A stretch of DNA of 44,356 nt from a virus, in the IMG/VR virus record IMGVR_UViG_3300029286_000080, positions 1 to 44,356 of that record; one strand, given 5' to 3'. A program made the translations under genes and the position numbers. Numbering within the stretch: position 1 is the first letter of the stretch; each line of letters opens with the position of its first letter. This document shows, one piece after another, positions 529-36,943 of this stretch. Under the pieces are notes generated by a model. It worked only from the letters and a program-made list of their open reading frames with translations, had not been told where the DNA came from and searched no databases.

Positions 529-1162
529 TCTCTCTGATTACTCTACACGGTGAACCATATGCAACCACATTGTCAGGGATGTCTTTAGTAACAACTGAAC
601 CTGCACCTATAATGGAGTTCTTACCTATTTTAACCGTATGTAATATGTTTGTCCCCATCCCTATTGTTGTACCTTCTCCTATTGTTACGTTTCCCGCAAT
701 GTTGGTGCCAGGATTAATGGAACAATAGTCACCTATGATTGTATGATGACCAATAGATACATGTCTGTTGATTGATACAAAATCCCCCACTGTGGTATGT
801 GCAGCAATTGAAACCTTTGAGTTGATTAGAACCCCACGTCCGAGTTCACTCATGTGTGATATGTCCAAACCATGATGTATCACATTAATGAACTTATCAA
901 TGTCAGGATTTATTGTCTCTATAATCTTTATCTTATGTTGAGGTTGGTATACTCCAAGAACAATCTTATTGTAGTTATTTAAATCCACATCATCAAACAA
1001 TTCTATATTGAAACCATCATGTGTGAATGTATTAATAATTGGTAAACCCAAATTATTGTATATGTGAATGTCAGGAGTTCTTCTGCCTATTGAATATAAA
1101 TTATCCAATATCATTGTTATTATATTATCCCCCTTACCGAGAATTAATAATTTTGTTTCCAT
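521..1162 (-). CDS. NeuD-like sugar O-acyltransferase (left-handed beta-helix)
   Basis: The 213-residue protein has the two-part NeuD/PglD layout: an N-terminal Rossmann-like part starting LLILGKGDN, then from about residue 105 hexapeptide repeats (INSKVSIAAHTTVGDFVSIN and similar) forming a left-handed beta-helix. It ends with the usual VVTKDIPDNVVAYGSP cap. Family members transfer acetyl groups from acetyl-CoA to sialic acid or amino-sugar hydroxyl or amino groups. The His residues in the helix coils (HHTIIG) are candidates for the catalytic base. It overlaps the BKACE gene upstream by 29 nt and the sulfotransferase downstream by 8 nt, so the three are probably co-translated. The real substrate is unknown. 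Confidence 0.8.
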   Translation of the reverse strand: METKLLILGKGDNIITMILDNLYSIGRRTPDIHIYNNLGLPIINTFTHDGFNIELFDDVDLNNYNKIVLGVYQPQHKIKIIETINPDIDKFINVIHHGLDISHMSELGRGVLINSKVSIAAHTTVGDFVSINRHVSIGHHTIIGDYCSINPGTNIAGNVTIGEGTTIGMGTNILHTVKIGKNSIIGAGSVVTKDIPDNVVAYGSPCRVIRENV

Positions 1163-1961
1163 ATCCCTTTTCTCTTAATTCCTCAGATGTATAATGTTCC
1201 ATGTCAAATTCATCCATCAATCTGTGGGCTCTTTTTAATAACTGCATGTTGGTGGTCTTTTCCTTACCCCTATAATATAAATTATCTTCCAAACCTATTC
1301 TAATTCCATCAAAATCCAATAACCCATAGGTCATACTCTTTAACTGTTGTGAACCTATTCCACCCAAACACGTAAATGAGTTCGTTGGTGAGTTATTTTT
1401 AATTGTTGATAACGTACCAAAGTCACATTGACCATTGTAGATATTCCCCAAAATTATATTGATGTGGTGTGGAGACTTTAATATGTTCTTTGAAATAAGA
1501 TAGTTTGTATAGTTTAACATACCCGTATCAAAACATTCTATCTCAGGTTGTACCCCGTATTTGTCCATCTCATTAATTAAAGACAATATCATCTCAGGTT
1601 GGTTAACCGATGTTCCTGATGGGAAGTTTAATGATGACATTGTTAGTGAACCCATGTCAGGATATAACTGTAGAACCTCCGCTCTTTGTGATAGTTCAGG
1701 GAAATTCCTACCTGTTAATGAAACGCAAATCAATAACTCAGGACAATACTTCTTTATCCCCTCTATTATCTTCTGATATACTTCCTTCTTGTATGTGTTT
1801 TCTAACGTAACCTCATCCCTTGCATGAAGATGAACAATGGATACACCAACCTCATTCGCACCTATTACCTCATCCACAATCTCACTTGAAGTCAATGGTG
1901 CGAACGAATTAATCCTCGTTGTCTGAGTACCTGTTGGAGTAAAATTAATTATTTTCTTCAT
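1134..1961 (-). CDS. BKACE family (beta-keto acid cleavage enzyme, DUF849)
   Basis: This is a 275-residue TIM-barrel protein. It has the HLHARD metal-binding motif near residue 45, typical of 3-keto-5-aminohexanoate cleavage enzymes, plus the later PEIECFDTG and DGIRIGLEDN segments that supply further active-site residues, the latter probably including the zinc-ligand Glu. The family joins or splits a beta-keto acid and acetyl-CoA in a zinc-dependent Claisen-type reaction. It sits between a glycosyltransferase-like gene (17-nt overlap) and a NeuD-like acetyltransferase (29-nt overlap). That suggests a role in making or decorating an unusual surface sugar rather than lysine fermentation. The role is inferred; family membership is well supported. 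Confidence 0.8.
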   Translation of the reverse strand: MKKIINFTPTGTQTTRINSFAPLTSSEIVDEVIGANEVGVSIVHLHARDEVTLENTYKKEVYQKIIEGIKKYCPELLICVSLTGRNFPELSQRAEVLQLYPDMGSLTMSSLNFPSGTSVNQPEMILSLINEMDKYGVQPEIECFDTGMLNYTNYLISKNILKSPHHINIILGNIYNGQCDFGTLSTIKNNSPTNSFTCLGGIGSQQLKSMTYGLLDFDGIRIGLEDNLYYRGKEKTTNMQLLKRAHRLMDEFDMEHYTSEELREKGYGNKIINSR

Positions 1962-4102: not shown

Positions 4103-4834
4103 TTATGTTAATGTATCAATTTCATTTTTCCAAATGGCCCTGTTAACAAGATTATATTTTGGGTTTTCCCTATTATAATAATATAATGCAAAACTTTTTC
4201 TGTACTCATTTTCAGGACAGTTTAGTGGGTTAGGATGTCCGTGAGGCGCCCTATCAATGTTAAACATTACAACACGATTACCAATTGGAGATATTAATTT
4301 GACAGGTCCTGACATGTCTTTGTCCCATAATTCTAAATCACCACCCCATTCAGATTCCCAATTTTTATTAAGGTAAAGTAAAAAATTGATTTGACGAAAC
4401 AAAGTAGAATCATGATGAGATAAATTAAAATCATGATGAACATCCAAAAAACCTCCACGGTGAGTTTGATGGTATCCTGAGTTACTATAATTTTCAATTG
4501 ATTGTAATTCTTTAAATCCTGTCATATCTTTTACCAAACCCAAAAAATATTTAGAATTAAGAAATTTAATCACCTCAACCATTTTTAAATCCATTTTTTC
4601 TATTCCATCAACTTGTCTTTTACCCCTTTGACTATCATGCTCATCTATAATACCATAAACATTGTTAATAAAAAATGAATCAGGTTTTTTTGATAATTGA
4701 TTAACCTCGTTCATCAACGCATTATAAACATCATCTCTTAGAAAATTATCAATAACAACATGAGGATAGGGACTCTGATTATTGTAAATATTTTTATAGG
4801 ATTCAAAATTATTATAAAAACTATCGCTCAACAT
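4103..4834 (-). CDS. 2-oxoglutarate/Fe(II)-dependent oxygenase (prolyl hydroxylase-like)
   Basis: The 243-residue protein has the double-stranded beta-helix iron site: His133 and Asp135 (FLDVHHDFN), the distal His near 198 (RAPHGHPNP), and Arg212 (YRKSFALYYY) to hold 2-oxoglutarate. The N-terminal part (PYPHVVIDNFLRDDVYNAL) is typical of prolyl 4-hydroxylase-like members. Such oxygenases are common in large phages (T4-like cyanophages), where the substrates are usually unknown. Candidates are virion proteins, sugars or nucleotides. It stands alone between the terminator at 4884-4911 and the 73-residue gene, with an AT-rich upstream region. Confidence 0.85.
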   Translation of the reverse strand: MLSDSFYNNFESYKNIYNNQSPYPHVVIDNFLRDDVYNALMNEVNQLSKKPDSFFINNVYGIIDEHDSQRGKRQVDGIEKMDLKMVEVIKFLNSKYFLGLVKDMTGFKELQSIENYSNSGYHQTHRGGFLDVHHDFNLSHHDSTLFRQINFLLYLNKNWESEWGGDLELWDKDMSGPVKLISPIGNRVVMFNIDRAPHGHPNPLNCPENEYRKSFALYYYNRENPKYNLVNRAIWKNEIDTLT

Positions 4835-6321: not shown

Positions 6322-6909
6322 TTAGTGACTACAAGAAATTTGATGTTCACCCCACTTTTTAGTTGGTTTTACATTTGGGAAGTAATAACATTTCCAAAAT
6401 CTTTGATTGTTAAAGTATATGTGTTTGGTAAATCCTGTTGGTACTGTAGCACCTGTTGGTAAGACAGTGTTTTTATTTTTGAATTCAACACTTATCTTGA
6501 TGGTTAACTTCTCAGCATCATCCCATTTTCTTTCTTGTTCCTCAAGTAATCTCCATTCCCCTCTGTTGAGGTATTGATTTTGTAATGCACAATTAAGATA
6601 TGAAAAAGTTGTTTTAAGGTTCTGTTCATTATCTGAAAAAGTTGCTGCAGGTGCAAGATGTCCTTTATCATAAATGTTATTAACGTAGTCTGCGCCGTCT
6701 GAAGTTTTAACATTTGGTTCTAAGTAGAAATCCATAGACCCTCTGTTAACATTGGTAGGTCGGTTTGATGACTCATAAGTCAATTCCAAAGGTTGTTCGA
6801 AAACTTGTGAATATCGTACTTTATAGATTGTTTTCTGTAATGTTACATCATCTAAATTTATTGAGGATGTAAAAAATAATATTGGGATTAATAAAAATAA
6901 TTTCTTCAT
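6322..6909 (-). CDS. Secreted DNA/RNA non-specific endonuclease (NucA/EndoG family)
   Basis: A hydrophobic signal peptide (KKLFLLIPILFFTSS) is followed by the nuclease fold. The catalytic motif is YDKGHLAPA with the general-base His at 84 (family consensus DRGH; here Lys replaces Arg). It is followed by the metal-binding helix NQYLNRGEWRLLEEQER carrying Asn115, Trp119 and Glu123. At 195 residues it is somewhat short for the family. Such enzymes cut DNA and RNA without sequence preference and work outside the cytoplasm. It lies 3 nt behind the PA14/dockerin-like gene at the end of the exported-protein operon. It could degrade host or competitor DNA outside the cell, or clear extracellular DNA. 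Confidence 0.85.
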   Translation of the reverse strand: MKKLFLLIPILFFTSSINLDDVTLQKTIYKVRYSQVFEQPLELTYESSNRPTNVNRGSMDFYLEPNVKTSDGADYVNNIYDKGHLAPAATFSDNEQNLKTTFSYLNCALQNQYLNRGEWRLLEEQERKWDDAEKLTIKISVEFKNKNTVLPTGATVPTGFTKHIYFNNQRFWKCYYFPNVKPTKKWGEHQISCSH

Positions 6910-6912
6910 TTT

Positions 6913-8073
6913 TTAATAGGTAACTTGTTTATAATATCCTGTAGCAATCAAATATAAATTCAAACTTCCACCACTTGTTAGGGTTGAAGATGTATAAGTC
7001 GCAACACCTGAATAAGTATTTCTTAAATTGGAATTTGCCACTTTCAATGAATCAAATTCACTCTGAATGAAAAATCTTGAGATAGGTAAAGACCCCCACG
7101 TAGATTTAAGACCTGATTTTTTAGCAAAAAGTAAAAATTGGTCCGAAACTGTTAATTTACCATCATTGTTCAAATCGTAGGTTTGAAAGATAATACCATT
7201 TACAGATTTGTTTTTCAAGACATAATTACCAATTATTAACCCGTCAGAATTATTCAAACTTGTAACAGGAGTTTGTGAGACAACTTCAATATAGTATTGT
7301 TTTGATGGGTCACTCGTTCTGTTAAAACTATAATAACCGGTAGAATTTGTATTAGAAGTTGCTTCCAAAGCCCAAGTTGTTGTTGTAGTAGATTGAGTAC
7401 CAATCTCTGATGATTGATATGAGTGAGTTGTTTGGGAGGGTCTTCTCCACACTAAATATAAACCATCCCCACCACCATACTCTTGCATTCTTGCGATAAA
7501 AGTATATGAATTTCCTTTTGTCAAATTAACGGTACCGTATCTGTAGACACCATATCCTTTACCACCGTACCACTCGACTATATTACCAGTGTTAACCAAC
7601 AATAAATCTGAACCATCATCAGAGGTTATTCCAAAAGAATAACTTCCTGTTTCTTGGGGAGTAAAAGTGAATGTTACCTCAACAGCATAATACTCACCAC
7701 TTGTCGGAACGGTTGCTCCGGCAGATGTAAGACTTGTATATTGCCCAAAATTCAATGATACGTTCCCTGACATGGTCCCACTCCACCAAAGATTAGTTGC
7801 ACTATAAGAAGTGTTGAAACACCTATCCATTTCAGTTCTTGTGGATGGATATGCTTGGTATTGAGATGTATTACCTGTTCCGAAGTGAGTCCGATATACT
7901 TTTACAGACGTACTGTTGTTTCCAGTAGTACTGACGCTCCTTTTGTATAATTTGACAGGTACATTATTTGCACCTGTTTCATCAGCATTGTATATTGTTC
8001 CTGAATAAGTAAAATTTTGGGATACCAAATCACCAAAAATAAAGTAACTCATTATGAACAACAAAATTCTCAT
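6913..8073 (-). CDS. Exported PA14-like protein with dockerin-like module
   Basis: The 386-residue protein has a signal peptide (RILLFIMSYFIFGDLVSQ). A central region of about residues 60-230 looks like a PA14 sugar-binding beta-barrel (ETGSYSFGITSDDGSDLLL, YTFIARMQEYGGGDGLYL). Near residue 303 it has an EF-hand/dockerin-like loop, DLNNDGKLTVSD, followed by a distinct segment (SRFFIQSEFDSL). The same loop and segment occur in the T9SS protein at 11463-13358 (DVNGDNKVTISD, VKFFTQSEYSAI). It has no T9SS tail of its own. The ATG overlaps the previous stop by 1 nt. It is probably a surface or extracellular glycan-binding component. Confidence 0.75.
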   Translation of the reverse strand: MRILLFIMSYFIFGDLVSQNFTYSGTIYNADETGANNVPVKLYKRSVSTTGNNSTSVKVYRTHFGTGNTSQYQAYPSTRTEMDRCFNTSYSATNLWWSGTMSGNVSLNFGQYTSLTSAGATVPTSGEYYAVEVTFTFTPQETGSYSFGITSDDGSDLLLVNTGNIVEWYGGKGYGVYRYGTVNLTKGNSYTFIARMQEYGGGDGLYLVWRRPSQTTHSYQSSEIGTQSTTTTTWALEATSNTNSTGYYSFNRTSDPSKQYYIEVVSQTPVTSLNNSDGLIIGNYVLKNKSVNGIIFQTYDLNNDGKLTVSDQFLLFAKKSGLKSTWGSLPISRFFIQSEFDSLKVANSNLRNTYSGVATYTSSTLTSGGSLNLYLIATGYYKQVTY

Positions 8074-8525
8074 TAGAATTTACTCAAAGCATCTTCAATA
8101 GATTTTTTTACAGCTGTAGCAAAGACTGATTTCTCGAAAGGTAAGTTCTCATCTCTTAATTCGGCAAAACCAGCTTTTACGGATAATTTAGCATCACCCT
8201 CACCCTCGTAAACCACAGAATCAATAATCATTTTAGTCTTTACGATAGTTATTTTCTTTTTAATCATGAATGGTCCGATGTTAAAACCAATTGAAGGTGC
8301 TTCAATAGAAACTATATCAACAGTTATTGGTGCACCATCTTCACATAATGAATATTTTTGACTTACTAATTCTTCGGTAATTTGTTTAACACCAAAGGTG
8401 AATCTCTTTGAAGATAAATCAGGATTGTCTGTTTTATTTTCTACTTTAGTTACAGTGTAACAATCTTGTGCGTTTAGATTTATACCACTTAGTATAATAC
8501 CTATTGTTATAATTAGTTTTCTCAT
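8073..8525 (-). CDS. Exported small protein of unknown function
   Basis: The 150-residue protein has a clear signal peptide (KLIITIGIILSGINLNAQ) and a mature beta-rich domain with two Cys (near residues 22 and 61). The middle (GFNIGPFMIKKKITIVKTKM) is followed by a C-terminal helix. Overlaps of 4 nt and 1 nt with its neighbours show strict co-translation within the CsgG-like operon. By position it could be a periplasmic accessory factor of the CsgG-like exporter, similar in role to CsgE or CsgF, but the sequence does not show membership of those families. Confidence 0.7.
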   Translation of the reverse strand: MRKLIITIGIILSGINLNAQDCYTVTKVENKTDNPDLSSKRFTFGVKQITEELVSQKYSLCEDGAPITVDIVSIEAPSIGFNIGPFMIKKKITIVKTKMIIDSVVYEGEGDAKLSVKAGFAELRDENLPFEKSVFATAVKKSIEDALSKF

Positions 8526-10012
8526 AATAAAATTTTTGCCCCTGTTAATATTTGATAGTTTAATACATTACCTTTTACTTGGTAAGTACTAGAAATACTC
8601 ACGTTGTACTTGAATGATTTTGATATTGTATAATCCCAAGAACTGAACGGTACCAATAAGATTCCTGAATCCCACCACTTACCATCATAGAACTTTGTAA
8701 AGGGTGAATAAACCCCCAACATTAATATATTCCCTGAAAGTTTTTTAGATGCTTTGAATGGCATAAACCCTCCACCAATTGCTGACAAGTTTGAAAACCC
8801 TTCACCGGCTAAAACACCCACAGTCATGTTCAGTCCACCCATCATAGTTAATTTACCAAATCTCTTTGAATTCATTGCAGTTGATGTGTTGAACAGGTTT
8901 TTTTCAAAATCAATCATAGATGAGTTCGCAACAATCAAAGTGTTTGTTTTTTTCTTATTAGAAAACGCCCCGTAAAATGTAAGGTTTGTATTATTAATTG
9001 TTGTTGTGAAGTTCAAAAGAAATCCTTTTGCCTTTGTATTGTTTGTATTTGACTTGGTAACCGACATAGTCCCTTTAAACTGATTTGAACCGTCTTCATT
9101 ACTTCTTAACGCAACGATATCACCCGTACCAATTACTGAACCCACTCTAACTTTGGAACCACCACCATTACCTGATGATGATTCTGCAGCGTTTGCAACA
9201 GAGTTTGTTGTTCCACCAACACCTCCACCCGTAGTCTCTTGTTTAGGTTTATCAGTTGGATTTGTACCCGATTGGGTATTACCACCCCCACTTTGACCTG
9301 TATTTGTACCCGATTGGGTATTACCTTGACTTGAATTATTATTTGAAGGATTGTTTACAGATGGCTGAGTCTGTCCACTTCCACCTTGAGTTGAGTTACC
9401 CGAACTTGATGTGTTTCCTCCATTTTGGTTAGTTGTTTCTCCTTGTTGCGAATTTCCTCCACCATTAGTTGAACCACCTCCTGAGTTTCCTGTTGTGTTA
9501 GGTGTTCCGTTTTGAGTTGTAGAACCATTCGATACAGTTCCTGAAGATGTATTATTTGATTGATTTGTTCCATTGTTTTGTTTGTTTGAAGAACCTCTTC
9601 TTGAGGACGAAGAGTTATTTGACGAAGCATTATCTACACTATTACTAATTGAGTTACCAACCGATGATACACTCATAGTAGATGCCGCAGTAATAGAAGT
9701 CAATGTTGCTATTATGTTTTGAGTAATAATCATATTTTGAGTTGTCTGAGTTTGTGTCATCATCTCATCACATGGTTGATTTGCACCTTGAACTTGAACA
9801 CTTGTTATCCAATTATCAAAAGTACCATTAACAAAATCTGTTTGGCTAAAACTACCAATAAAACCAAGGTAGTTCACGGTAACATTTTGGTTACCCGTAA
9901 TATTAATTACTTTTTGTTTTTTGGAACAAGGGTCCACATACGAATACGTGAACCCCTGTCCAAATAAATTAGAGGAAAATAATAGTGATAATATGATTAA
10001 TATTTTTTTCAT
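8522..10012 (-). CDS. Exported protein with low-complexity linker and barrel-like C-terminus
   Basis: The 496-residue protein has a signal peptide (KKILIILSLLFSSNLFGQ) and a 120-residue N-terminal domain with two Cys. A roughly 170-residue low-complexity stretch follows, built almost only of Asn, Ser, Gly, Thr and Gln (near residues 125-295). The C-terminal 180 residues have alternating hydrophobic strands (KLTMMGGLNMTVGVLAGEGF, SGNILMLGVYSPF) like an outer-membrane beta-barrel. Asn/Gln/Ser/Gly richness is also typical of curli-like amyloid subunits. It overlaps the neighbouring genes by 1 and 4 nt. It may be the outer-membrane or fibre partner of the CsgG-like lipoprotein; no named family is recognised. 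Confidence 0.7.
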   Translation of the reverse strand: MKKILIILSLLFSSNLFGQGFTYSYVDPCSKKQKVINITGNQNVTVNYLGFIGSFSQTDFVNGTFDNWITSVQVQGANQPCDEMMTQTQTTQNMIITQNIIATLTSITAASTMSVSSVGNSISNSVDNASSNNSSSSRRGSSNKQNNGTNQSNNTSSGTVSNGSTTQNGTPNTTGNSGGGSTNGGGNSQQGETTNQNGGNTSSSGNSTQGGSGQTQPSVNNPSNNNSSQGNTQSGTNTGQSGGGNTQSGTNPTDKPKQETTGGGVGGTTNSVANAAESSSGNGGGSKVRVGSVIGTGDIVALRSNEDGSNQFKGTMSVTKSNTNNTKAKGFLLNFTTTINNTNLTFYGAFSNKKKTNTLIVANSSMIDFEKNLFNTSTAMNSKRFGKLTMMGGLNMTVGVLAGEGFSNLSAIGGGFMPFKASKKLSGNILMLGVYSPFTKFYDGKWWDSGILLVPFSSWDYTISKSFKYNVSISSTYQVKGNVLNYQILTGAKILL

Positions 10013-10353
10013 TAATCAACACTCGTCACATCCGATAATACTTGACCATCTTCCTCGTCCACTTTCTGAATTAACATCTTATCTCTATCTTCAGAGTTAA
10101 ACCAATAGTCAACAACCTTATTTAGATTACCAACGAAAGCACCCAATAAGATTAATAACATTTCCTTCCAACTCTCTTGAATTTGAATACCCGCAAATGT
10201 TGCAACGTTGATACCTAAAATGATAAAGAAAAACAAAAACAACACAACGATAGTAATTCTCCATCTGTTTGATTGCATTTGTTGTAACATGTAGTAGAAT
10301 CTGTTTTTATCATCTACCTTAACGTAATCACTTGTACTAAATAATTTTTTCAT
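10012..10353 (-). CDS. Small inner-membrane protein, holin-like
   Basis: This is a 113-residue protein with a charged N-terminus and two hydrophobic segments (about 32-54, IVVLFLFFFIILGINVATFA, and about 65-82, EMLLILLGAFVGNLNKVV). An acidic cytoplasmic tail follows. Two closely spaced TM segments and charged ends fit a class II holin or a related phage membrane protein; the LGAF...YWF pattern is often seen in phage holin-like proteins. It lies 1 nt behind the CsgG-like lipoprotein gene and overlaps the next gene by 1 nt. The lysis role is inferred. Confidence 0.65.
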   Translation of the reverse strand: MKKLFSTSDYVKVDDKNRFYYMLQQMQSNRWRITIVVLFLFFFIILGINVATFAGIQIQESWKEMLLILLGAFVGNLNKVVDYWFNSEDRDKMLIQKVDEEDGQVLSDVTSVD

Positions 10354-10354
10354 T

Positions 10355-11083
10355 TTAACTTTTTAACATTCCTTTTTTAATGAGTTTTTCAACTACTCTT
10401 ACAGTTGAAGTCTCAAGAGCCTTTTTTGTAGATACACCCACAGTTGATTTGTTAAATGTTGGTCCTTCAATATCACCTAAAGTCGTTGAAGTCTTGGTTG
10501 TGATTGCTCTACCTTGACCTGACCCTGTAATAATTTCTCCCGTTTCAGCATCCACAAATCTAACCTGTAGTCCTAACTGAGTTACTTGTTTTATTGTAAC
10601 ACCACTTGTTTCAACAACTTCATCTTCACCTACAGAAAAATCATAGACTTCAATGTAAACAAAGTATTTTGCCAATTTGATTTTACCTTTTCCATCAATT
10701 TTGTTTTCGGTAAATCCTTTATTGGAAGCTTTGAATTGTTGAACCATTCTTTCTTTGATTTCCAATTTGTCTTCTGTGAATACAAATCTTCCTGTTTCCT
10801 CCAAGTATTCCAATACAATGTTTGTAACACCCATCCCAACACGAGCATCTTTTAATTCAGGGTACATTTCATACACTTCATCATTAATACCAATCTTTAA
10901 GATTTGAATTGGGATTTGTATTGTATCTGTATAAGGTGGAAGTGATTCCAAAGACTTTTTCTTTTCAAAATTTGCGGTATACTCCTCAGTTTTAACAGAA
11001 CCGATTTGTTGACCATGGCACTCTTTTGGAGTACCACACCCAACTAATACTAATCCCAAAACAATTAGTTTACCAAGGTGCAT
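10355..11083 (-). CDS. CsgG-like outer-membrane lipoprotein (curli-type secretion channel)
   Basis: The 242-residue protein starts at the internal ATG that gives a lipoprotein signal with lipobox LVLVGC (lipidated Cys16). The mature part follows the CsgG pattern: a strand-rich start, a helix with VTNIVLEYLEETGRFVFTED (CsgG: 'LxxALxxSGRFxxxER'), then KYFVYIEVYDFSVGEDEV, VRFVDAETGEIITGSGQG and a C-terminal helix (KKALETSTVRVVEKLIKKG). CsgG forms a nonameric outer-membrane pore that exports curli subunits. CsgG homologues are reported in some marine myoviruses. It overlaps the one-TM gene by 14 nt. This is the strongest clue that the operon builds an export complex. Confidence 0.75.
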   Translation of the reverse strand: MHLGKLIVLGLVLVGCGTPKECHGQQIGSVKTEEYTANFEKKKSLESLPPYTDTIQIPIQILKIGINDEVYEMYPELKDARVGMGVTNIVLEYLEETGRFVFTEDKLEIKERMVQQFKASNKGFTENKIDGKGKIKLAKYFVYIEVYDFSVGEDEVVETSGVTIKQVTQLGLQVRFVDAETGEIITGSGQGRAITTKTSTTLGDIEGPTFNKSTVGVSTKKALETSTVRVVEKLIKKGMLKS

Positions 11084-11384
11084 CTTCAGACTCACTTTTC
11101 TCTTGTTTAGGAGCAGGTGCCGCTGGTTTTTCAACTGTCTTTTCTTTGATAACTGTTGTTGTTCCACCACCAGAATTCGTGTTCTTAGATGAATTGTCAA
11201 CATTCAAATTAATCACAGGTGCCGCAGGTGCAACTTGCTCTGTTTTTGGTGACTCTTCTTCATCACCACCAAAAAGTGTTGTGGTGAAATAAGCTCCACC
11301 AGCTGTGACTGCTGTTGCAATTGTCCCGATGATAGTTTTTTTCAAACCACTCCAGGTTCCGTCATTTTCTTGTTCTTCTGACAT
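11070..11384 (-). CDS. One-TM protein with proline/alanine-rich tail
   Basis: The 104-residue protein has a short acidic N-terminus, an Ala/Thr/Gly-rich hydrophobic segment (residues 16-40, including IIGTIATAVTAGGAYFTTTL) and a disordered tail rich in Pro, Ala, Lys and Glu ending SEDAPW. The tail could span the periplasm in the manner of TonB or spanin-like linkers; this is speculation. It is the first gene of the CsgG-like transcript, 78 nt behind the T9SS gene and its hairpin. Confidence 0.6.
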   Translation of the reverse strand: MSEEQENDGTWSGLKKTIIGTIATAVTAGGAYFTTTLFGGDEEESPKTEQVAPAAPVINLNVDNSSKNTNSGGGTTTVIKEKTVEKPAAPAPKQEKSESEDAPW

Positions 11385-11432
11385 TGTTTTTTGATTTTTA
11401 ATTTATTGGGTTTATTGTTTTTATTTGGCTAA

Positions 11433-11459
11433 CTTGAGGTCTCAATTTGAGACCTCAAG
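11433..11459. terminator. Perfect 12-bp palindromic hairpin behind the T9SS gene
   Basis: CTTGAGGTCTCA, a 3-nt loop, then TGAGACCTCAAG, starting 3 nt past the stop of the T9SS gene. There is no strong T-run, so it may be a weak terminator, an attenuator or an mRNA-stabilising 3' structure separating the T9SS gene from the CsgG-like operon. Confidence 0.5.
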
Positions 11460-11462
11460 ATT

Positions 11463-13358
11463 TTACTTGACTACTGAAGTTCTCTCTGAATACAACTCAT
11501 CGTCTTTTCTGAGAATAGCGATGTATTCACCAGCACTTAACATTCCTAAGTTTACAGTTGTAGAGTATTGACCAACAGAGTATGTTCCGTTTAATACTTC
11601 AATACATTTTTTACCACCCATATCGTAAACACCTAAGGTAACAAAACCTTTCTCGTATATCTTGAATGTAATCATGGTTTCACCCATGGTTGGGTTTGGG
11701 TAAACTCTCATCTTTTCAAAACCCGATAACTCGGTAGGGTTTCTTTTGAAGACTTGTAAGATACCATCTGTTGGTGTGATAATTAAATCAGTTGCAACAT
11801 TGTCACCAGCAAATTTTCTTGTAACATATAAAGGACTTTTGTTCCATTCACTCTGAGTCATTTTAGAACGGAATTCTAATGTGAATAAAGTCTCACCGTC
11901 TTTAACCAAATTTCTATTATTTGTTGGGTCGTATCCACCCCACTCAACTTCGTTATCGTTTACATTAATGAAAGAAATCCAATAAGAAGATTTCAATTCA
12001 TTTTGAAGTGATACAAACTCTAACAAATCAGAGTCATATTTCATTGAAAGTTGTAACGCTCCTAAGTCAATTCCTGATGTTTTTAATTTTACAGGAACTC
12101 TTACCAAGTTACCTTCATCAACACCAAGGGTTGGGAAGTTTACTTCAATGGTTTTTAGATTATTGTCGTATTGAGTTGTAACATCAATGATACGTTTGTT
12201 AGCGTTGTTTGGGTTAACAATTTCAATTGGAATCAAACGAGCTCTTTTGAATCCTGTTCCGTTAGCATCACCCGGTACCAACACATAGTATGTAACTGAG
12301 TCAGGTTGACCCGCAACAATATTAAATGTAAAATTAGTTACACCTGCATATGTTGTTTGTTGAGAGGTTGTTGTACCATTAATTGCTGAGTATTCACTTT
12401 GAGTGAAGAACTTAACATCAGGTACTGAATTCGCCCAAGTGGTGAATCTACCTGCAACTCTCGCATAAACACCATAAACGTCAGAAATTGTAACTTTATT
12501 GTCACCGTTAACATCTGATGAATAGAAATCAAAACCTGTCATTGTATTTGTACCCAAAACAGATTGGTTAATTCTCTGAGCATCTGCGGTTGTTACAACA
12601 TTTCCAACTGACATAGTATCACCTTGGATTTTGATTCTAACATTCCAAGCTGAGGTATCTACCTCAACATTATTGAATGCAAATTTACCATCAAGACCCG
12701 ATGCTTGAGAAGTTACTTGAGACCATGTTGAAGATGTCTTAAGTTTCTTTTCAAGAGCTACCGTAATGTTCTTTGCTGCCGTACCTGTAACATTCACAAA
12801 CTTCCCTTTGAATGAGAATACTTGAGGTAATAATTCACCACCAAAGTTTGTTAGATTCAAACTGTAATCATCACCTGATTGTTTTGTCGCTGTTTGTGAA
12901 AAACTACTTGAACCAACAAATGTCAAATCTGAAATTGTAAAGTAAGTTGTTGCAAGTGCAGTTGTGTGATTCAATTTAACATTAAACAACGAACCGTCAG
13001 GAATATCAAAAGTTGAAACAGTACCAGTGTAGGTCATTGTAATAGTTACATAACCAGATGTTGGATTGTCTACATACTGAAGATATTGTGAGAAGCTCGT
13101 GTTAGTTGATGTTACGGTATCCACACCACTGAAGGCCTGTTTGTCGTAAAACATTCTAAATTGAACCGCTGTTATGTTCTCTGATGAACTGTTGTAGAAA
13201 CAGAGCCCTACGTTTGTGAAACCATCACTGTATTTACCTGTTTGATAGGTCGAGTCTAATGTGATGTGAACTCCTGTTGTTGTCGGTGTGGGACAGGTTT
13301 GAGCCTTTGCAGTGACCAACATGGTTAGCGATAAAATCGCAATCATAAGTTTTCTCAT
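11463..13358 (-). CDS. Secreted cohesin/dockerin-like protein with T9SS type A sorting domain
   Basis: The 631-residue protein has a signal peptide (RKLMIAILSLTMLVTAKAQ). It has a cohesin-like beta-sandwich near residues 25-165 (AVQFRMFYDKQAFSGV), a dockerin-like EF-hand module near 255-300 (DVNGDNKVTISDVYGVYARV), and a second cohesin-like domain near 390-538 (ALQLSMKYDSDLLEFVSLQN). A C-terminal T9SS type A sorting domain spans about 545-631 (MRVYPNPTMGETMITF, LGMLSAGEYIAILR). The sorting domain routes proteins through the Bacteroidetes type IX system to the cell surface. No T9SS machinery gene is seen, so it must use the host's. It has its own start region and a hairpin behind it. A T9SS address on a phage gene is highly unusual. 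Confidence 0.85.
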   Translation of the reverse strand: MRKLMIAILSLTMLVTAKAQTCPTPTTTGVHITLDSTYQTGKYSDGFTNVGLCFYNSSSENITAVQFRMFYDKQAFSGVDTVTSTNTSFSQYLQYVDNPTSGYVTITMTYTGTVSTFDIPDGSLFNVKLNHTTALATTYFTISDLTFVGSSSFSQTATKQSGDDYSLNLTNFGGELLPQVFSFKGKFVNVTGTAAKNITVALEKKLKTSSTWSQVTSQASGLDGKFAFNNVEVDTSAWNVRIKIQGDTMSVGNVVTTADAQRINQSVLGTNTMTGFDFYSSDVNGDNKVTISDVYGVYARVAGRFTTWANSVPDVKFFTQSEYSAINGTTTSQQTTYAGVTNFTFNIVAGQPDSVTYYVLVPGDANGTGFKRARLIPIEIVNPNNANKRIIDVTTQYDNNLKTIEVNFPTLGVDEGNLVRVPVKLKTSGIDLGALQLSMKYDSDLLEFVSLQNELKSSYWISFINVNDNEVEWGGYDPTNNRNLVKDGETLFTLEFRSKMTQSEWNKSPLYVTRKFAGDNVATDLIITPTDGILQVFKRNPTELSGFEKMRVYPNPTMGETMITFKIYEKGFVTLGVYDMGGKKCIEVLNGTYSVGQYSTTVNLGMLSAGEYIAILRKDDELYSERTSVVK

Positions 13359-13386
13359 AAGAGTGTTAATTAGTGTAATTATAAAT

Positions 13387-13845
13387 ATGATTAAATCACT
13401 TGTTTTTACACTACTTACAATTTTTTGTATAACTCTTAATGCACAGATAAAAATAGATGTTGTTGGCGATAATTGGGAACATAATGTTCATAAGGCACTA
13501 ACACTAATTAAAAATACCGACACAACGGTATACAACACAGTAATAAAAAATTGTACTCATATTGGTTTTTGGAATGGTAACTATTCAACCACCGAAGGTA
13601 ATGAAATTTATATCACAACCATTGAAGTTAGATATGGTAACATCCAAAATTTGGCTTGTGTAATAGTTCACGAATCAAAACATATTGAACTATCAAAATT
13701 ATCCTTAGATAGCAAAGAAGAGGAGTGTGTTTGTTATCTTTATGAACTTGAGTTTTTAATAAAACTAAAAGATGTTGACCTATTTTTAATAGATAACATT
13801 CAAAGAAAGTTGAATTATTATGATTGTGAAAAGTATTTAAAATAA
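13387..13845 (+). CDS. Secreted HExxH metalloprotease-like protein
   Basis: The 152-residue protein was started at the ATG that gives a proper signal peptide (KSLVFTLLTIFCITLNAQ); the longer upstream frame overlaps the divergent gene. The mature part has a zinc-protease helix IVHESKHIEL (HESKH at 95-99), followed 12-14 residues later by EEEC as a possible third ligand, and three Cys. It is small for a peptidase and no named family is recognised. It could be an active exported protease or an inactive relative. It is divergent from the T9SS gene (28-nt gap) and overlaps the next gene by 1 nt. Confidence 0.65.
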   Translation: MIKSLVFTLLTIFCITLNAQIKIDVVGDNWEHNVHKALTLIKNTDTTVYNTVIKNCTHIGFWNGNYSTTEGNEIYITTIEVRYGNIQNLACVIVHESKHIELSKLSLDSKEEECVCYLYELEFLIKLKDVDLFLIDNIQRKLNYYDCEKYLK

Positions 13846-18525: not shown

Positions 18526-19638
18526 TTAAACCATTTTTATTTTCTGACAAAGATGAAGTGCCTGAGCAATCACTTGGTGCATGTCATAGTATTGATAAGT
18601 TCCTAACCTACCACCGAACATATACTTCTCAAGTTTATCACCTTGTATTTTATATTTGGTGTAAATCTCACCATTTGTATCATCCTTGATTGGGTAATAC
18701 GGTTCATTATCACCTGTATAGTCACAGGGATATTCTTTACTAACATAACTTGTTTTTTGATTTTGATAGTCAAAGAACTTATGTTCTAAAATCCTTGTGA
18801 ATGGTGTATCACTGTCAGTATAATTAACCACGGGATGTCCTTGAAAACTGTGTGAAGTAATATGGACGTTCTCCCACCTCAAACTACGGTATTCTAATCT
18901 ACCATGTTCGTAATCAAAAAACTTATCAATTGGTCCTGTGTAGATTATCTTATCCGCAGCCTCTTCCCACATTCTTTTGTTTTCAAAGAAGTCTTGGTTC
19001 AAGAACACATCAACATTGTCCAATAACTTTTCAAATATCTGTGTGTACCCGCCAACAGGAATACCTTGGTATCTATCATTGAAGTAATTATTGTCCCATG
19101 TAAACCTTACAGGTATTCTTTTGATGATTGACGCAGGTAGTTCCGCACATTTCTTCCCCCATTGTTTCTCGGTATATCCCTTAATAAACTTCTCATATAT
19201 GTCGGTACCAACCATAGACAAGGCTTGTTGTTCTAAGTTAGTTACAGGACCTTTATATCTTTGTTCCTCTATCTTCGCCTTTGCTTGTTCTTCTGTCTTC
19301 ACACCCCACAGTTGGTGGAACGTCCACATATTAAATGGAAGGGTGTATAACTCTTCTTTGTAGTTTGCTATGGGTGAATTAACAAACTGTTTAAAATCTG
19401 CAAATTGATTTACCCAGTCCCATATCTTTTTACTGTCTGTATGAAATATGTGTGCACCGTATCGGTGAACATGAATTCCGTCAACATCTTCGGTATAACA
19501 GTTACCCCCAATGTGACTTCTTTTATCTATTACAAGTACTCTATGATTTTTACCCAACTCGTAGGCACAGGTTGCTCCGAAGAGTCCTGCGCCTACGATT
19601 AGGTAATCATATTTGCTATTCGAAATCAAATTCAACAC
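18526..19638 (-). CDS. glf: UDP-galactopyranose mutase
   Basis: This is a full-length 370-residue flavoenzyme. It has the FAD-binding YDYLIVGAGLFGATCAYELG, the DKRSHIGGNCY segment, RYGAHIFHTDS, KGYTEKQWGK and the C-terminal GGRLGTYQYYDMHQVI that contacts FAD and UDP. All are hallmarks of bacterial Glf, which interconverts UDP-galactopyranose and UDP-galactofuranose. It is the last of three glycan genes and overlaps the upstream glycosyltransferase by 23 nt. Together they could add galactofuranose-containing glycans to phage proteins or to the host surface. Glf is unusual in phages. Confidence 0.93.
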   Translation of the reverse strand: MLNLISNSKYDYLIVGAGLFGATCAYELGKNHRVLVIDKRSHIGGNCYTEDVDGIHVHRYGAHIFHTDSKKIWDWVNQFADFKQFVNSPIANYKEELYTLPFNMWTFHQLWGVKTEEQAKAKIEEQRYKGPVTNLEQQALSMVGTDIYEKFIKGYTEKQWGKKCAELPASIIKRIPVRFTWDNNYFNDRYQGIPVGGYTQIFEKLLDNVDVFLNQDFFENKRMWEEAADKIIYTGPIDKFFDYEHGRLEYRSLRWENVHITSHSFQGHPVVNYTDSDTPFTRILEHKFFDYQNQKTSYVSKEYPCDYTGDNEPYYPIKDDTNGEIYTKYKIQGDKLEKYMFGGRLGTYQYYDMHQVIAQALHLCQKIKMV

Positions 19639-20779
19639 CGTCAGAACTTAATACTGGTTCCTCAATTCTACGTTTGAGTTTATCTGACCACTCTTGTAAG
19701 AAATTTGATGTGTTATGGTAACAACGGTCTTCAATCAAGAAACACATCTGAGGGAATGGATTCACTCTTTCTTGTCCCATCATAATTTGTAAGTATCCAT
19801 AGATTTCATCGTATCTTCTTTGAGTTTCCAAGAAGAAACACAGGTAGAGTAAGTGTTCGTTTCTTATTGGAGCGAACGCCTCTGCCTGATGAAAACACTT
19901 TTCAGCTTTTTCCAAGTCACCAATTACTTCCCAAGCCTGACCCATCAAGATAAATGCGAAGTAAGCCATCTCATCAATTCTTGCAGGTCTACCAGTAACA
20001 TAATAGTTGTGAGAATACTCCATGAACTTTTCGTAGTAGAAAATACATCTTCTAGCAAATTCTTTTGAGTGGTCTAAACCAAATGGAAGTTCGTCAGACT
20101 TACCCCAACAATCAGAGTATGATTTTGCAACATACCAAAGGTGATACAAATCTTCTTTAACGGTATTACCAACCACTTTGTCAATCTCAAGTTCCAACGC
20201 GTCTTTCAAGAACTTTCTTGGAACATTCCAAGTCTGTCCGTCACTGTGAACCACATGTCTGAATCCTTCAGGGAGAGTAACTCTAACAAACCCTTCACCG
20301 ATTTCAGGTAAGTGGATTGTTTCGTGTCTTTTATCGTGTTGGAAGAACCATGGTCGGTCAGCATTCCACAACCAAGTTCGGTAGTATCTCATACCGTTTG
20401 CATGTGCAATTACGTTATAAGAATCCACACTCAAGTCATCCAATACGGACCAATCAAAATCTTCATCAATCTCAAGAATCTCATCAGCGTCCATCCTCAA
20501 AATCCATTGACATCCGTGGTCTGTTTGGAGACATGTCTTCAAGGTATGGTCTCGGTTCCAACCTGGATATTGCCATTCAATCTCATAGAGTAAACCAGGG
20601 ATTCCTTTTTCCGCAAAGAAGTTACGGATAATGTCCTGAGTTCCGTCTTTTGAACCGTTATCTTGGATAACCCAATAGTCAATGTGTCTCCACACTGTTT
20701 CTAACATTCGGGTTATTGTTGGTGCCTCGTTGGCAACCATTGCGTTTAAACACAATTTAATTTTCTTGTTATTATTCAT
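19616..20779 (-). CDS. GT2 glycosyltransferase with helical C-terminus
   Basis: This is a 387-residue protein. The N-terminal GT-A domain has IKLCLNAMVANEAPTITRML, VIQDNGSKDGTQDII and the metal-binding RMDADEIL near residue 95. The C-terminal half is helical with a TPR-like rhythm (QAWEVIGDLEKAEKCFHQAE, YLCFFLETQRRYDEIYGYL). This architecture is typical of the SunS/WcaA-like proteins found in large phages and cyanophages. It overlaps the next glycosyltransferase by 8 nt and glf by 23 nt. The acceptor is unknown and could be protein or lipid. Confidence 0.85.
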   Translation of the reverse strand: MNNNKKIKLCLNAMVANEAPTITRMLETVWRHIDYWVIQDNGSKDGTQDIIRNFFAEKGIPGLLYEIEWQYPGWNRDHTLKTCLQTDHGCQWILRMDADEILEIDEDFDWSVLDDLSVDSYNVIAHANGMRYYRTWLWNADRPWFFQHDKRHETIHLPEIGEGFVRVTLPEGFRHVVHSDGQTWNVPRKFLKDALELEIDKVVGNTVKEDLYHLWYVAKSYSDCWGKSDELPFGLDHSKEFARRCIFYYEKFMEYSHNYYVTGRPARIDEMAYFAFILMGQAWEVIGDLEKAEKCFHQAEAFAPIRNEHLLYLCFFLETQRRYDEIYGYLQIMMGQERVNPFPQMCFLIEDRCYHNTSNFLQEWSDKLKRRIEEPVLSSDGVEFDFE

Positions 20780-22019
20780 AGATGTAATTCATTACTTGTT
20801 CTTCATTATGATACTTTCTCACTCCCCCACGGTTTTGAAACTTCTGAGAGTGACCCAGTTCTTCATCCCAATTCCAATCTTCAAAACCCAACTCAATGAT
20901 TCTCTCATGAATTCGTTTGTCATAGTGGTCTCGGATTAATCTTGCTCTACGATTGATGTCTGTCGCATTGTTATCAACCGTTGAATTTTTATTGTTATAT
21001 TGGATGTATAACATTTTTTTGACGTGAATCATTCGTGTATGTAGAAATGTATGAACAATAAGTTCAAAGTCATCAGCAACAGGTGTCAACTTGTTGTGTC
21101 CACCAATCTCATGATATAGTTTTCTCTCCCACATTCTTACATGGTTTGGCATTGATATGTTAAACCGTATGGACAATGGGTTGATATCAGGGTACCAATG
21201 TGCCAATCTCTCCACACCATCAACCATAACTTTGGTATGACCTGCATATCCAAAGTCAAAGTAATTGTCGTGTCTCGCATACCAATCACCTGACCAATCG
21301 TGGTCATAGTATTTGAATTCACCATCCTCGTAACACTCGGTCACGTCTGTGTATAGGAAACCAGCATCGGGGTATTGAAGGATGGCATCATGAGAGATTT
21401 GTAAACACTCTGAAGTTAATGCATCATCATGGTCCAACTCAACCAACCAATCCCCATCACCAAGTGTTGCCGCTCTGTGTTTTGCCAAACCAACGTTACC
21501 ACCTGTAATTGGATACAACTTGTGAGGTTTTACCCTGTAGTCCTTCTCAGCAATTTTCTTGAGGATATTCCACGTAACATCATCAGGGGAATCATCCAAC
21601 ACAATCCATTCCCAATTGGTGAATGTTTGTTTTTTCATACTCTCATAGGTTCTGTAAATCCTTTCGTTTGTCTTATACGTTGGAGTGAATACTGAGAACC
21701 GTGGACGTATGTATTCGGTGTTTCTGAAAACAGACTGACATACAATCACATTTGCCAAAACCATATCAGGTAACGGTTCATCATAATGAATGTGAAATCT
21801 CGTTAGATGAAAATGTGGTATTTCAATGTTCTCATCAAAAGAAATAATTAGGTCAGGTTTATACTGTGTATAATCTTCAATGACTGTATTCTCATAGGGT
21901 AAAGAATAAATCACAACCTCATCATGAAGGTGTTCCTCCCAGTAAATGTCTGAATGTAATATAATCTCCCCCAAAGTGTGCCAACCGTAAACGATTGCCG
22001 ATGGTTTTTTTGTTTGCAT
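20772..22019 (-). CDS. GT2 glycosyltransferase with N-terminal extension
   Basis: The 415-residue protein has an N-terminal domain of about 105 residues (SAIVYGWHTLGEIILHSD, PDLIISFDENIEIPHF) of unclear origin. A family 2 GT-A domain follows: RFSVFTPTYKTNERIYRTYE, WIVLDDSPDD, GGNVGLAKHRAA and the DxD motif VELDHDDAL. Family 2 enzymes use nucleotide sugars with inversion. It is the first gene of the three-gene glycan unit that ends with glf, which could supply UDP-galactofuranose to it. Confidence 0.85.
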   Translation of the reverse strand: MQTKKPSAIVYGWHTLGEIILHSDIYWEEHLHDEVVIYSLPYENTVIEDYTQYKPDLIISFDENIEIPHFHLTRFHIHYDEPLPDMVLANVIVCQSVFRNTEYIRPRFSVFTPTYKTNERIYRTYESMKKQTFTNWEWIVLDDSPDDVTWNILKKIAEKDYRVKPHKLYPITGGNVGLAKHRAATLGDGDWLVELDHDDALTSECLQISHDAILQYPDAGFLYTDVTECYEDGEFKYYDHDWSGDWYARHDNYFDFGYAGHTKVMVDGVERLAHWYPDINPLSIRFNISMPNHVRMWERKLYHEIGGHNKLTPVADDFELIVHTFLHTRMIHVKKMLYIQYNNKNSTVDNNATDINRRARLIRDHYDKRIHERIIELGFEDWNWDEELGHSQKFQNRGGVRKYHNEEQVMNYIYE

Positions 22020-35953: not shown

Positions 35954-36943
35954 ATGGCGTTTATTGACTTAGTAATTCAAGATTTTAATGAAGGTGATTA
36001 TGACCTTTTAGAAACCGCATTTAATGGGGATGTCAACACATTTTTTAATTATGTTAATAAAAAAGGTAAATTTGAAGAGATAATTGCCGATGATTATAAT
36101 CATAACGATTATGAAAACGATTACATTCTGTGGGTTTCTAATAACAAACCAGAAATTTTCCGTAAACTTATTGAAGATAAATTATCCGATGTAACATACA
36201 TTGATGGTAAATGGTATTTTATAACATCTGATAGAGGGGATTTATCCAAACTTTATTGTGATGATAGAGATATTGGTCGTAACACAATAGAATCTATATT
36301 GTCAGGTGAATATGATAGTTCTGATTATTGGGATTCAGGAATAGATGTCTATGACAACGTAATTGATGATTTAAACGACCAAAACAAACAAACTTTAATT
36401 GAAAGATTATTAGAGGAATTGAAAGATGAAGAAATCTTACCATCAACAGATTTACTAAAAGAAATTGCATCGTCTCAAGGTCATGATGAGTATGTATCTT
36501 TAGACACTGAAACATTAAGTAGAATAATCAATGATAAAAAATCTATTAAAGAAATCTTACCCGATGATTTAGAAAGTGAGTTGGTGAGTTTATACTGGAG
36601 TGCCTATAATGTGGCATATGAAGATGAACTCTACGAATCTATTTGGAGTGAACTTGATTCTATATTTGAAGGTAATGGTGAATGGACTCAAACACCTTCC
36701 CCTTATGATAAAAATAAATTTACCCAAAAATTTCAAATACCTTTTATAGATTTAGAGTCAATTGTAAAAGATTATCTTGAAGATAATCTTAGATATAAAG
36801 ATAGAACCTTGGAGTATTGGGGTAATATTATTAATATAATTGATGATACACATGAGTGTTTAAGAGTTAGAGTACCTGAATATGCAGATTGGACTGAAAC
36901 CAAACAAAATATCAATTCTCTTTACAACGATTACATTTCTTAA
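35954..36943 (+). CDS. Acidic 329-aa hypothetical protein
   Basis: The 329-residue protein is strongly acidic (FIDLVIQDFNEGDYDLLETA, IDGKWYFITSDRGDLSKLYC). It is helical with short strands and has no signal peptide or TM segment. Its composition (Asp, Glu, Tyr, Ile, Asn) resembles the proteins at 24716-25246 and 34041-35069, suggesting a group of acidic proteins of related role, such as scaffolding or DNA mimicry. The evidence is compositional. It overlaps the convergent fibre gene by 4 nt. Confidence 0.65.
   Translation: MAFIDLVIQDFNEGDYDLLETAFNGDVNTFFNYVNKKGKFEEIIADDYNHNDYENDYILWVSNNKPEIFRKLIEDKLSDVTYIDGKWYFITSDRGDLSKLYCDDRDIGRNTIESILSGEYDSSDYWDSGIDVYDNVIDDLNDQNKQTLIERLLEELKDEEILPSTDLLKEIASSQGHDEYVSLDTETLSRIINDKKSIKEILPDDLESELVSLYWSAYNVAYEDELYESIWSELDSIFEGNGEWTQTPSPYDKNKFTQKFQIPFIDLESIVKDYLEDNLRYKDRTLEYWGNIINIIDDTHECLRVRVPEYADWTETKQNINSLYNDYIS

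What the first reader, a model, noticed from the sequence alone, without database searches (positions are those of the whole stretch)
6322..13845. A phage-borne block of exported proteins built around a CsgG-like pore
Seven of nine consecutive genes carry a signal peptide or lipobox: a nuclease, a PA14/dockerin-like protein, a 150-aa protein, a low-complexity/barrel protein, a CsgG-like lipoprotein, a T9SS-addressed protein and a secreted HExxH protein. The remaining two are membrane proteins, one holin-like. Five genes overlap or nearly touch, so they are made together. CsgG-type genes are known in some marine phages, but I know of no phage locus that joins one to a T9SS cargo, dockerin-like modules and a secreted nuclease. 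It may remodel the surface of the infected cell, export a nuclease or fibre, block superinfection or aid release.
Basis: partly seen in the sequence, partly recalled or inferred. Interest (0 to 1): 0.88.

Follow-up and report, generated by a model that had tools for sequence, protein, structure and literature searches.

The report
Phage gene cluster for surface lectins
Many uncultured phages, and one grown on Flavobacterium, carry the same six-gene kit that would let an infected cell put exchangeable sugar-binding proteins on its surface; the kit is seen in the sequence, its working is inferred and not tested.

Summary
The block is a conserved, almost phage-only module: (1) a signal-peptide protein with a dockerin-like domain, a cohesin-like domain and a T9SS C-terminal address; (2) p104, a one-helix membrane protein; (3) a CsgG-fold protein; (4) p496, a predicted 12-strand outer-membrane barrel behind a long low-complexity linker; (5) p150, a small paralogue of the CsgG protein; (6) a dockerin-tailed protein with an exchangeable head (C-type lectin, laminin-G/ConA-like, PA14, GEVED). 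Of loci with enough flank, 68 of 68 found by CsgG, 39 of 42 by p496 and 54 of 58 by the cohesin protein carry all six. The T9SS tail is on 104 of 104 cohesin proteins and 0 of 93 dockerin proteins. Heads are unalike in 10 of 60 pairs whose CsgG is at least 95% identical. Isolate relative: Flavobacterium phage immuto. Best reading: T9SS plants a cohesin scaffold on the infected cell, CsgG-fold/barrel proteins assist export, and a lectin docks there, most likely to exclude rival phages or hold hosts together. 'CsgG-like pore' is right as a fold, unproven as a pore. The nuclease and HExxH protein are accessory. No function was tested.

The parts
11463..13358 (-). 631-aa cell-surface scaffold candidate: signal peptide, N-terminal domain of unknown type (about 20-175), linker and dockerin-like domain (about 176-304), cohesin-like domain (about 395-538), T9SS type A sorting tail (552-624)
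   Evidence: Por_Secre_tail 2e-6, over cut-off; Dockerin_1 0.0051, under cut-off. Family profile against PDB: scaffoldin adaptor chain 4uyp_B at 244-304, 0.0017 (a dockerin, from recall), cohesin-containing scaffolding protein 6kg8_A at 401-538, 0.0034. Pfam Cohesin over cut-off in relatives L014, L024 and immuto gp015, not listed for the window's own protein. The N-terminal domain looked cohesin-like by eye, but hhalign with the cohesin domain gave probability 0.5
11070..11384 (-). p104: no signal peptide, one membrane helix near the N-terminus (by eye), Pro/Ala-rich tail ending ESEDAPW; probably anchored in the inner membrane
   Evidence: alignment A4 of 17 members, last Trp invariant; in 68 of 68 CsgG-anchored loci with enough flank
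10355..11083 (-). CsgG-fold protein, 242 aa, with a lipobox-like LVGC in this member
   Evidence: Pfam CsgG 5.7e-4; AlphaFold pLDDT 72.8; Foldseek best hits CsgG, 2e-7; VIA Z 12.3, above PelC 9.9 and LptE 9.0
10012..10353 (-). TM113: membrane protein with two hydrophobic stretches (by eye); its place in the module varies between phages
   Evidence: 68 of 82 loci; no convincing family
8522..10012 (-). p496: signal peptide, small N-terminal domain with two invariant Cys, helix 82-113, about 170-aa Ser/Asn/Gly/Thr-rich linker, 12-strand outer-membrane barrel (292-496)
   Evidence: alignments; AlphaFold whole-chain pLDDT 57.4, but 16 of 21 ten-residue blocks from residue 291 on are 72-84; NalP autotransporter translocator Z 23.9 over 226 residues, FapF Z 17.7
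8073..8525 (-). p150: exported small paralogue of the phage CsgG-fold protein
   Evidence: hhalign with the phage CsgG profile: probability 96.5, E 8.6e-10 and 97.9; the p150 profile finds the window's and immuto's CsgG by HMMER, 2e-4 and 4e-5 in a small ORF set
6913..8073 (-). 386-aa lectin candidate: signal peptide, PA14 head, dockerin-like tail; no T9SS tail
   Evidence: PA14 1e-5; its tail matches the scaffold's dockerin region, hhalign probability 100, E 7e-38; heads in 26 members scanned: Lectin_C 15, Laminin_G_3 7, GEVED 2, PA14 2
6322..6909 (-). secreted DNA/RNA non-specific endonuclease (accessory)
   Evidence: Endonuclease_NS 8e-20; D[KR]GH motif in 13 of 13 non-redundant members; in 27 of 82 loci
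13387..13845 (+). secreted HExxH protein, putative metallopeptidase, divergent from the scaffold gene (accessory, frequent)
   Evidence: HExxH in 31 of 31 non-redundant members; in 64 of 82 loci, on either strand; no Pfam family
11433..11459 (.). palindrome (12-bp stem) between the scaffold gene and p104; possible terminator or attenuator
   Evidence: the gap is shorter in most relatives (median 13 bp in 87 pairs), so not a general feature

Best explanation
The block is a phage-encoded module for displaying lectins on the surface of the infected Bacteroidota cell. Shown by sequence: the six parts travel together, the cohesin protein carries a T9SS address, the dockerin protein does not, and its head is exchanged while the rest stays. 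Inferred: (a) host Sec exports all the signal-peptide proteins; (b) host T9SS carries the cohesin scaffold to the cell surface; (c) host BAM inserts the p496 barrel; (d) the CsgG-fold protein, its paralogue p150 and p104 form a ring or funnel that, with p496, passes the dockerin-lectin across the outer membrane, or anchors the complex; (e) dockerin binds cohesin outside, leaving a glycan-binding head exposed. The likeliest benefit is control of the cell's surface during infection: covering or competing for glycan receptors so that rival phages cannot adsorb, with holding neighbouring hosts together as second choice.
For: Co-occurrence: all six parts in 68 of 68 CsgG-anchored, 39 of 42 p496-anchored and 54 of 58 cohesin-anchored loci with enough flank (the three sets share contigs; 28 of 96, 37 of 79 and 21 of 79 loci with short flanks were left out). 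Division of labour: T9SS tail on 104 of 104 cohesin proteins and 0 of 93 dockerin proteins (the tail profile comes from this family and some dockerin proteins are cut by contig ends; Pfam also lists no T9SS tail in 26 dockerin proteins). Modularity: immuto splits the scaffold into gp014 (dockerin-like) and gp015 (signal peptide, cohesin, T9SS tail) beside a dockerin-lectin, gp013. Heads are of glycan-binding types; 56 of 93 dockerin proteins have EPN followed by W[N/D]D, a C-type lectin signature known to me from recall. Head exchange at 95% or more CsgG identity in 10 of 60 pairs, perhaps three events. Cell rather than virion: in immuto the module sits by replication and nucleotide genes, away from head and tail genes, and no other immuto ORF matches the cohesin, dockerin or T9SS profiles at E up to 0.1. 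Both phages carry glycosyltransferase genes.
Against: No binding, export or surface exposure was tested. Dockerin_1 stays under the Pfam cut-off where it is listed; Cohesin is not listed for the window's own protein and immuto gp014 has no Pfam match. Cohesin is common in cells of the phylum (69 of 198 genomes), so its presence alone says little. CsgG hairpins are short and AlphaFold did not complete the second, so a pore may not form. How the dockerin-lectin crosses the outer membrane is a guess. Early expression is inferred only from position. The heads could bind substrates or virions rather than receptors.
Confidence: 0.5

Rival explanations
1. A curli-like (type VIII) module: the CsgG protein is an outer-membrane pore that secretes a fibre, or gates lysis, as proposed for pelagiphages and phage Melnitz.
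For: CsgG fold; a low-complexity partner; phage CsgG modules are in print (PMC9004378, PMC7029224, PMC9599517; passages read).
Against: No curlin-repeat family among the ten block proteins at E up to 1; no CsgE or CsgF match by profile, though that test was weak; hairpins are short; immuto has annotated endolysin and holin genes elsewhere; curli needs no cohesin, dockerin or T9SS parts.
Confidence: 0.13
2. The lectins end up on virions or in the medium: the proteins are released at lysis and decorate or guide virions, with cohesin-dockerin joining them.
For: Glycan-binding heads and head exchange resemble tail-fibre adhesin swapping.
Against: The core parts other than p104 have signal-peptide-like starts and one is T9SS-addressed; no other immuto ORF matches the cohesin or dockerin profiles; the window's fibre-like proteins are collagen-repeat/S74 proteins without such domains.
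Confidence: 0.12
3. The CsgG-fold proteins are not a pore but a PelC/LptE/TraT-like ring or plug that alters the outer membrane; exclusion would work at that level, and the lectin complex merely sits on it.
For: PelC Z 9.9, PelBC 9.4, LptE 9.0, TraT 7.6 (Z under 8 may mean only a common arrangement); hairpins shortened; a separate barrel protein is encoded next to it, as in PelB-PelC (the analogy is recalled).
Against: CsgG itself is the best match by about 2 Z units and one long hairpin is predicted.
Confidence: 0.2
4. A substrate-capture device, cellulosome-like: infected cells bind algal polysaccharide so that the host keeps feeding the infection.
For: Cohesin-dockerin parts, laminin-G/ConA-like and PA14 heads; enzymatic T9SS cargo is reported in Cryophage (PMC7468147, passages read).
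Against: No glycoside hydrolase family among the seven families matched by 26 dockerin proteins; the heads look like binding modules.
Confidence: 0.1

Closest known systems
Pelagiphage and methylophage type VIII (curli) modules: HTVC008M, HTVC023P-type, Melnitz (PMC7029224, PMC9599517, PMC9004378; passages read)
   Same: Phage-encoded exported gene cluster around a CsgG-fold protein, not known from the host, thought to act on the infected cell.
   Different: Those carry CsgF, and CsgA/B with FecR in the HTVC023P type; here none of these was recognised, and a T9SS-addressed cohesin scaffold, dockerin-lectins, a 12-strand barrel and a CsgG paralogue are present. The one known host here is a Flavobacterium.
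Cryophage T9SS cargo genes (PMC7468147; passages read)
   Same: Phage proteins with T9SS type A tails, one with PA14, variable between variants; the authors suggest competition or superinfection exclusion.
   Different: There the variable proteins themselves carry the T9SS tail; here the constant scaffold carries it and the variable protein has a dockerin. The words CsgG, curli, cohesin and dockerin do not occur in that paper's main text.
Cellulosome cohesin-dockerin scaffolds
   Same: Cohesin-like and dockerin-like domains on separate exported proteins.
   Different: No cellulase family found in the 26 dockerin proteins scanned; T9SS address; lectin heads in place of enzymes.
CsgG (E. coli curli secretion channel)
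   Same: Fold, signal peptide, a lipobox-like motif in some members.
   Different: About 14-18% identity in structural alignments; both hairpin segments shorter; lipobox-like motif in 6 of 24.
Autotransporter translocators (NalP) and FapF
   Same: 12-strand barrel with a helix before it; the NalP alignment starts at residue 80 of the model, where that helix lies.
   Different: A roughly 170-residue low-complexity linker separates helix and barrel; no passenger of known type.

Membership tests
Curli / type VIII secretion | CsgG fold | tested here: met
   CsgG best match, Foldseek 2e-7 and Z 12.3; Pfam just under cut-off
Curli / type VIII secretion | CsgG membrane hairpins long enough for an outer-membrane barrel | tested here: inconclusive
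   hairpin segments 34-38 and 39-41 residues in 24 phage rows; 38 and 50 in six of seven cellular rows for each hairpin, with one value of 31 and one of 44; the second hairpin is not fully built
Curli / type VIII secretion | CsgE and CsgF partners | tested here: inconclusive
   no profile match, but the same shallow profiles also failed to link phage CsgG with cellular CsgG
Curli / type VIII secretion | Curlin-repeat fibre subunit (CsgA/B) | tested here: not met
   no curlin-repeat family among ten block proteins at E up to 1
T9SS cargo | Signal peptide plus C-terminal sorting domain | tested here: met
   Por_Secre_tail 28.4 bits, cut-off 27; tail on 104 of 104 cohesin proteins with a family-derived profile; signal peptide by eye and crude score
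T9SS cargo | Actual export by host T9SS | not testable with these tools
   needs an infected T9SS mutant
Cohesin-dockerin scaffold | Cohesin domain | tested here: met
   family profile against a PDB cohesin protein 0.0034; Pfam over cut-off in L014, L024, immuto gp015; not listed for the window protein itself
Cohesin-dockerin scaffold | Dockerin domain | tested here: inconclusive
   Dockerin_1 under cut-off where listed; PDB scaffoldin adaptor chain 0.0017; home-made loop motif in 74 of 93
Cohesin-dockerin scaffold | Binding of dockerin to cohesin | not testable with these tools
   no complex prediction on hand
Autotransporter (type V) | 12-strand C-terminal barrel | tested here: met
   model and Z 23.9 to NalP
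Autotransporter (type V) | Passenger joined by a pore helix directly to the barrel | tested here: not met
   low-complexity linker 114-287 lies between helix and barrel

The most novel reading that the evidence does not exclude
A dedicated phage surface-display machine not described before: host T9SS plants a phage cohesin socket on the infected cell, a phage CsgG-fold/barrel apparatus exports dockerin-tagged lectins, and the lectins plug in. Because only the head is swapped, phages would re-aim the cell coat against new rivals or hosts by trading one cassette, a second adhesin arms race carried out on the infected cell rather than on the tail fibre.
Probability: 0.35. Interest if true: 0.9.

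Novelty: new variant of a known kind. Interest (0 to 1): 0.77.

Why it matters
The role of CsgG genes in phages has been called a mystery (PMC7029224, passages read), with later proposals of fibres, aggregation, import or lysis timing (PMC9599517, PMC9004378, passages read). Here a CsgG-fold protein comes with an apparent cargo, a docking partner and an address tag, in an isolate phage with a cultured host (immuto on Flavobacterium sp. LMO8), so the question becomes testable. If right, phages carry a socket-and-plug system for recoating infected cells, with exchangeable plugs.

Tried and rejected
Considered and dropped: p150 as CsgE and the p496 N-terminus as CsgF (both looked alike by eye); hhalign gave nothing, and p150 turned out to be a CsgG paralogue. 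A second cohesin in the N-terminal domain of the scaffold: by eye only, not borne out (probability 0.5). LpoB (TIGR02722, 20.1 bits against a cut-off of 110.55) as the identity of the CsgG protein; LpoB is also not among the 50 structural rows shown, which excludes nothing. A ribosomal S1 match of p150 (0.0033) was judged chance: best stretch 0.2. The CsgG profile found nothing in PDB sequences. Cellular origin: the CsgG family was found in 1 of 84,980 genomes (a MAG contig; two short patterns only, so distant relatives can be missed) and in 1 of 296 genomes of that MAG's phylum, the same MAG; p496 likewise. Controls for curli partners: CsgE in 10 of 148 and CsgF in 13 of 148 such genomes, 11 over the cut-off. 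Viral structures: one CsgG-named phage protein at 1e-6, a second unnamed at 2e-4. Defence-system library: no hits. Promoter scan: no excess, 35 against 40.8 in shuffles. Head-exchange counting: one search failed; one search's count (194 of 348) wrongly included heads too short to compare; one search counted a shared N-terminal stretch as homology and gave 0; one search leaves out the first 62 and last 170 residues and gives 10 of 60 (3 of 57 loci with short heads dropped). Paper searches for the combination: searches listed no paper that I recognised as describing it; two searches listed none that I recognised as analysing immuto's genome (listings only), and the word immuto is absent from PMC7077304. 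That library lacks most subscription papers.
Full report
What was checked. The window is a 44,356-base virus record of unknown completeness. All nine ORFs of the finding exist. The HExxH gene most likely starts at 13387. Domain scans confirm a non-specific endonuclease, PA14, a T9SS sorting tail and a borderline CsgG match.

The block is a conserved module. tblastn-confirmed relatives in IMG/VR numbered 138 and 295 for the CsgG protein, 405 for p496 and 228 for the cohesin protein; these are matched stretches, with near-duplicates, and each call kept 79 or 80 loci. By profile search all six core parts (cohesin/T9SS protein, p104, CsgG, p496, p150, separate dockerin protein) are present in 68 of 68 CsgG-anchored loci with at least 5.5 kb upstream and 5 kb downstream, in 39 of 42 p496-anchored ones (three lack a detectable p104) and in 54 of 58 cohesin-anchored ones (p150 seen in 56, the dockerin protein in 55). 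Loci with shorter flanks were left out (28 of 96, 37 of 79, 21 of 79), and the three sets share contigs. Neighbouring genes nearly touch: median gaps 13, -7 and 0 bp in 87, 60 and 65 adjacent pairs. The nuclease is in 27, the HExxH gene in 64 and TM113 in 68 of 82 loci (the 82 include a short piece of the window itself and immuto), so the first two are accessory.

It is nearly confined to phages in what I could search. The CsgG family appeared in 1 of 84,980 species genomes, a metagenome-assembled contig (two short patterns), and in 1 of 296 genomes of that phylum, the same one; p496 likewise. Among 50,697 GenBank phage records only four immuto records, of three phages, match the CsgG protein, the cohesin protein and p496. 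Immuto infects Flavobacterium sp. LMO8; its gp012-gp019 are nuclease, C-type lectin protein, two scaffold pieces, p104, CsgG, p496 and p150.

The parts. The 631-aa protein has a T9SS tail over the Pfam cut-off, regions matching solved scaffoldin and cohesin chains, and Pfam Cohesin over the cut-off in three relatives (L014, L024, immuto gp015), though not in the window's own copy. Its N-terminal domain is of unknown type. In immuto the protein is two genes: gp014 with the N-terminal and dockerin-like parts, recognised by this family's profiles but by no Pfam model, and gp015 with signal peptide, cohesin and T9SS tail. The dockerin protein shares the scaffold's dockerin region (hhalign probability 100, E 7e-38); of 13 profiles compared pairwise only this pair and CsgG-p150 stood out, the next best reaching probability 3. 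Its heads differ: Lectin_C in 15, Laminin_G_3 in 7, GEVED in 2, PA14 in 2 of 26 scanned. None of 93 dockerin proteins has the T9SS tail and all 104 cohesin proteins have it (the tail profile came from this family, and some proteins are cut by contig ends). Cohesin domains are common in cells of the phylum, 69 of 198 genomes, so the phages may have taken them from hosts.

The CsgG protein. AlphaFold with 24 relatives gave pLDDT 72.8. Foldseek's best solved matches are CsgG, and VIA-align places CsgG (Z 12.3) above PelC (9.9) and LptE (9.0). A long first hairpin is predicted (140-178); the second is not completed. Both hairpin segments are mostly shorter than in seven Bacteroidota curli CsgG proteins. 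Only 6 of 24 have a lipobox-like motif. So: CsgG fold yes, pore open.

p150 and p496. p150 is a small paralogue of the phage CsgG protein. p496 ends in a predicted 12-strand barrel most like autotransporter translocators (Z 23.9) and FapF (17.7); whole-chain confidence is low (57.4) because of the linker, but 16 of 21 blocks of the barrel are 72-84. No CsgE, CsgF or curlin repeat was found, with the caution that the profile test could not link even the phage and cellular CsgG families.

Head exchange. Among 54 non-redundant CsgG-anchored loci with usable heads, 60 pairs have CsgG at least 95% identical over the last 200 residues; in 10 the heads have no blastp match at 1e-3 while barrel, scaffold and p150 are 83-98% identical. 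In the other 50 pairs the heads do match. The ten come from three groups (L003/L006; L012/L014; L063 and L073 against L066, L067, L071 and L077), so perhaps three events. In L073 and L077 the two ends of the protein are nearly the same by eye and the middle differs. In L003/L006 the whole gene looks replaced (tail 39%). This fits a specificity cassette.

Setting. In immuto the module lies by ribonucleotide reductase and recombination genes, away from head and tail genes, and no other ORF matches cohesin, dockerin or T9SS profiles (three genes are cut at the edges of the pieces searched). The window has a UDP-galactopyranose mutase and two glycosyltransferases upstream, and immuto a glycosyltransferase cluster: both phages may alter host surface sugars.

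Mechanism. The simplest reading is that T9SS places the cohesin scaffold outside, the dockerin-lectin crosses by another route for which the CsgG-fold proteins and p496 are the natural candidates, and the two meet on the cell surface. The route and the meeting are inference. Among uses, exclusion of rival phages fits variable glycan-binding heads and neighbouring glycan genes best; host aggregation ('sibling capture', PMC7029224) is next; virion decoration, substrate capture and lysis are less likely.

Compared with print. Phage curli modules (PMC7029224, PMC9004378, PMC9599517) and phage T9SS cargo with PA14 and a suggestion of superinfection exclusion (PMC7468147) are known; I read passages of these. 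My searches listed no paper that I recognised as describing a phage cohesin-dockerin display module, in a library that misses most subscription journals.

Noticed in passing
window 18526-22019 (-): UDP-galactopyranose mutase (PF03275, 1.5e-76) and two family-2 glycosyltransferases: the phage may alter host surface glycans.
   Followed up: partly
window 1134-1961 (-): A beta-keto acid cleavage enzyme (BKACE, 2.6e-59), to my knowledge an unusual gene for a phage.
   Followed up: no
window 36940-44355 (-): Two long collagen-repeat proteins ending in endosialidase-chaperone (S74) domains, and a third S74 protein running off the window's end; probably tail fibres.
   Followed up: no
window 4103-4834 (-): 2OG-Fe(II) oxygenase, 1.8e-17.
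   Followed up: no
L111-L120: Six of seven cellular Bacteroidota CsgG proteins read beside CsgF are 450-469 aa, with a long C-terminal extension after the CsgG domain that looks barrel-like by eye; in the phages a barrel is a separate protein.
   Followed up: no
window 11433-11459: A strong palindrome between the scaffold gene and p104 that may split the transcript.
   Followed up: partly
L083, L100, L285: A 254-kb contig in a Bacteroidetes MAG carries CsgG, p496 and cohesin genes of this family side by side and is probably a misbinned phage genome.
   Followed up: no
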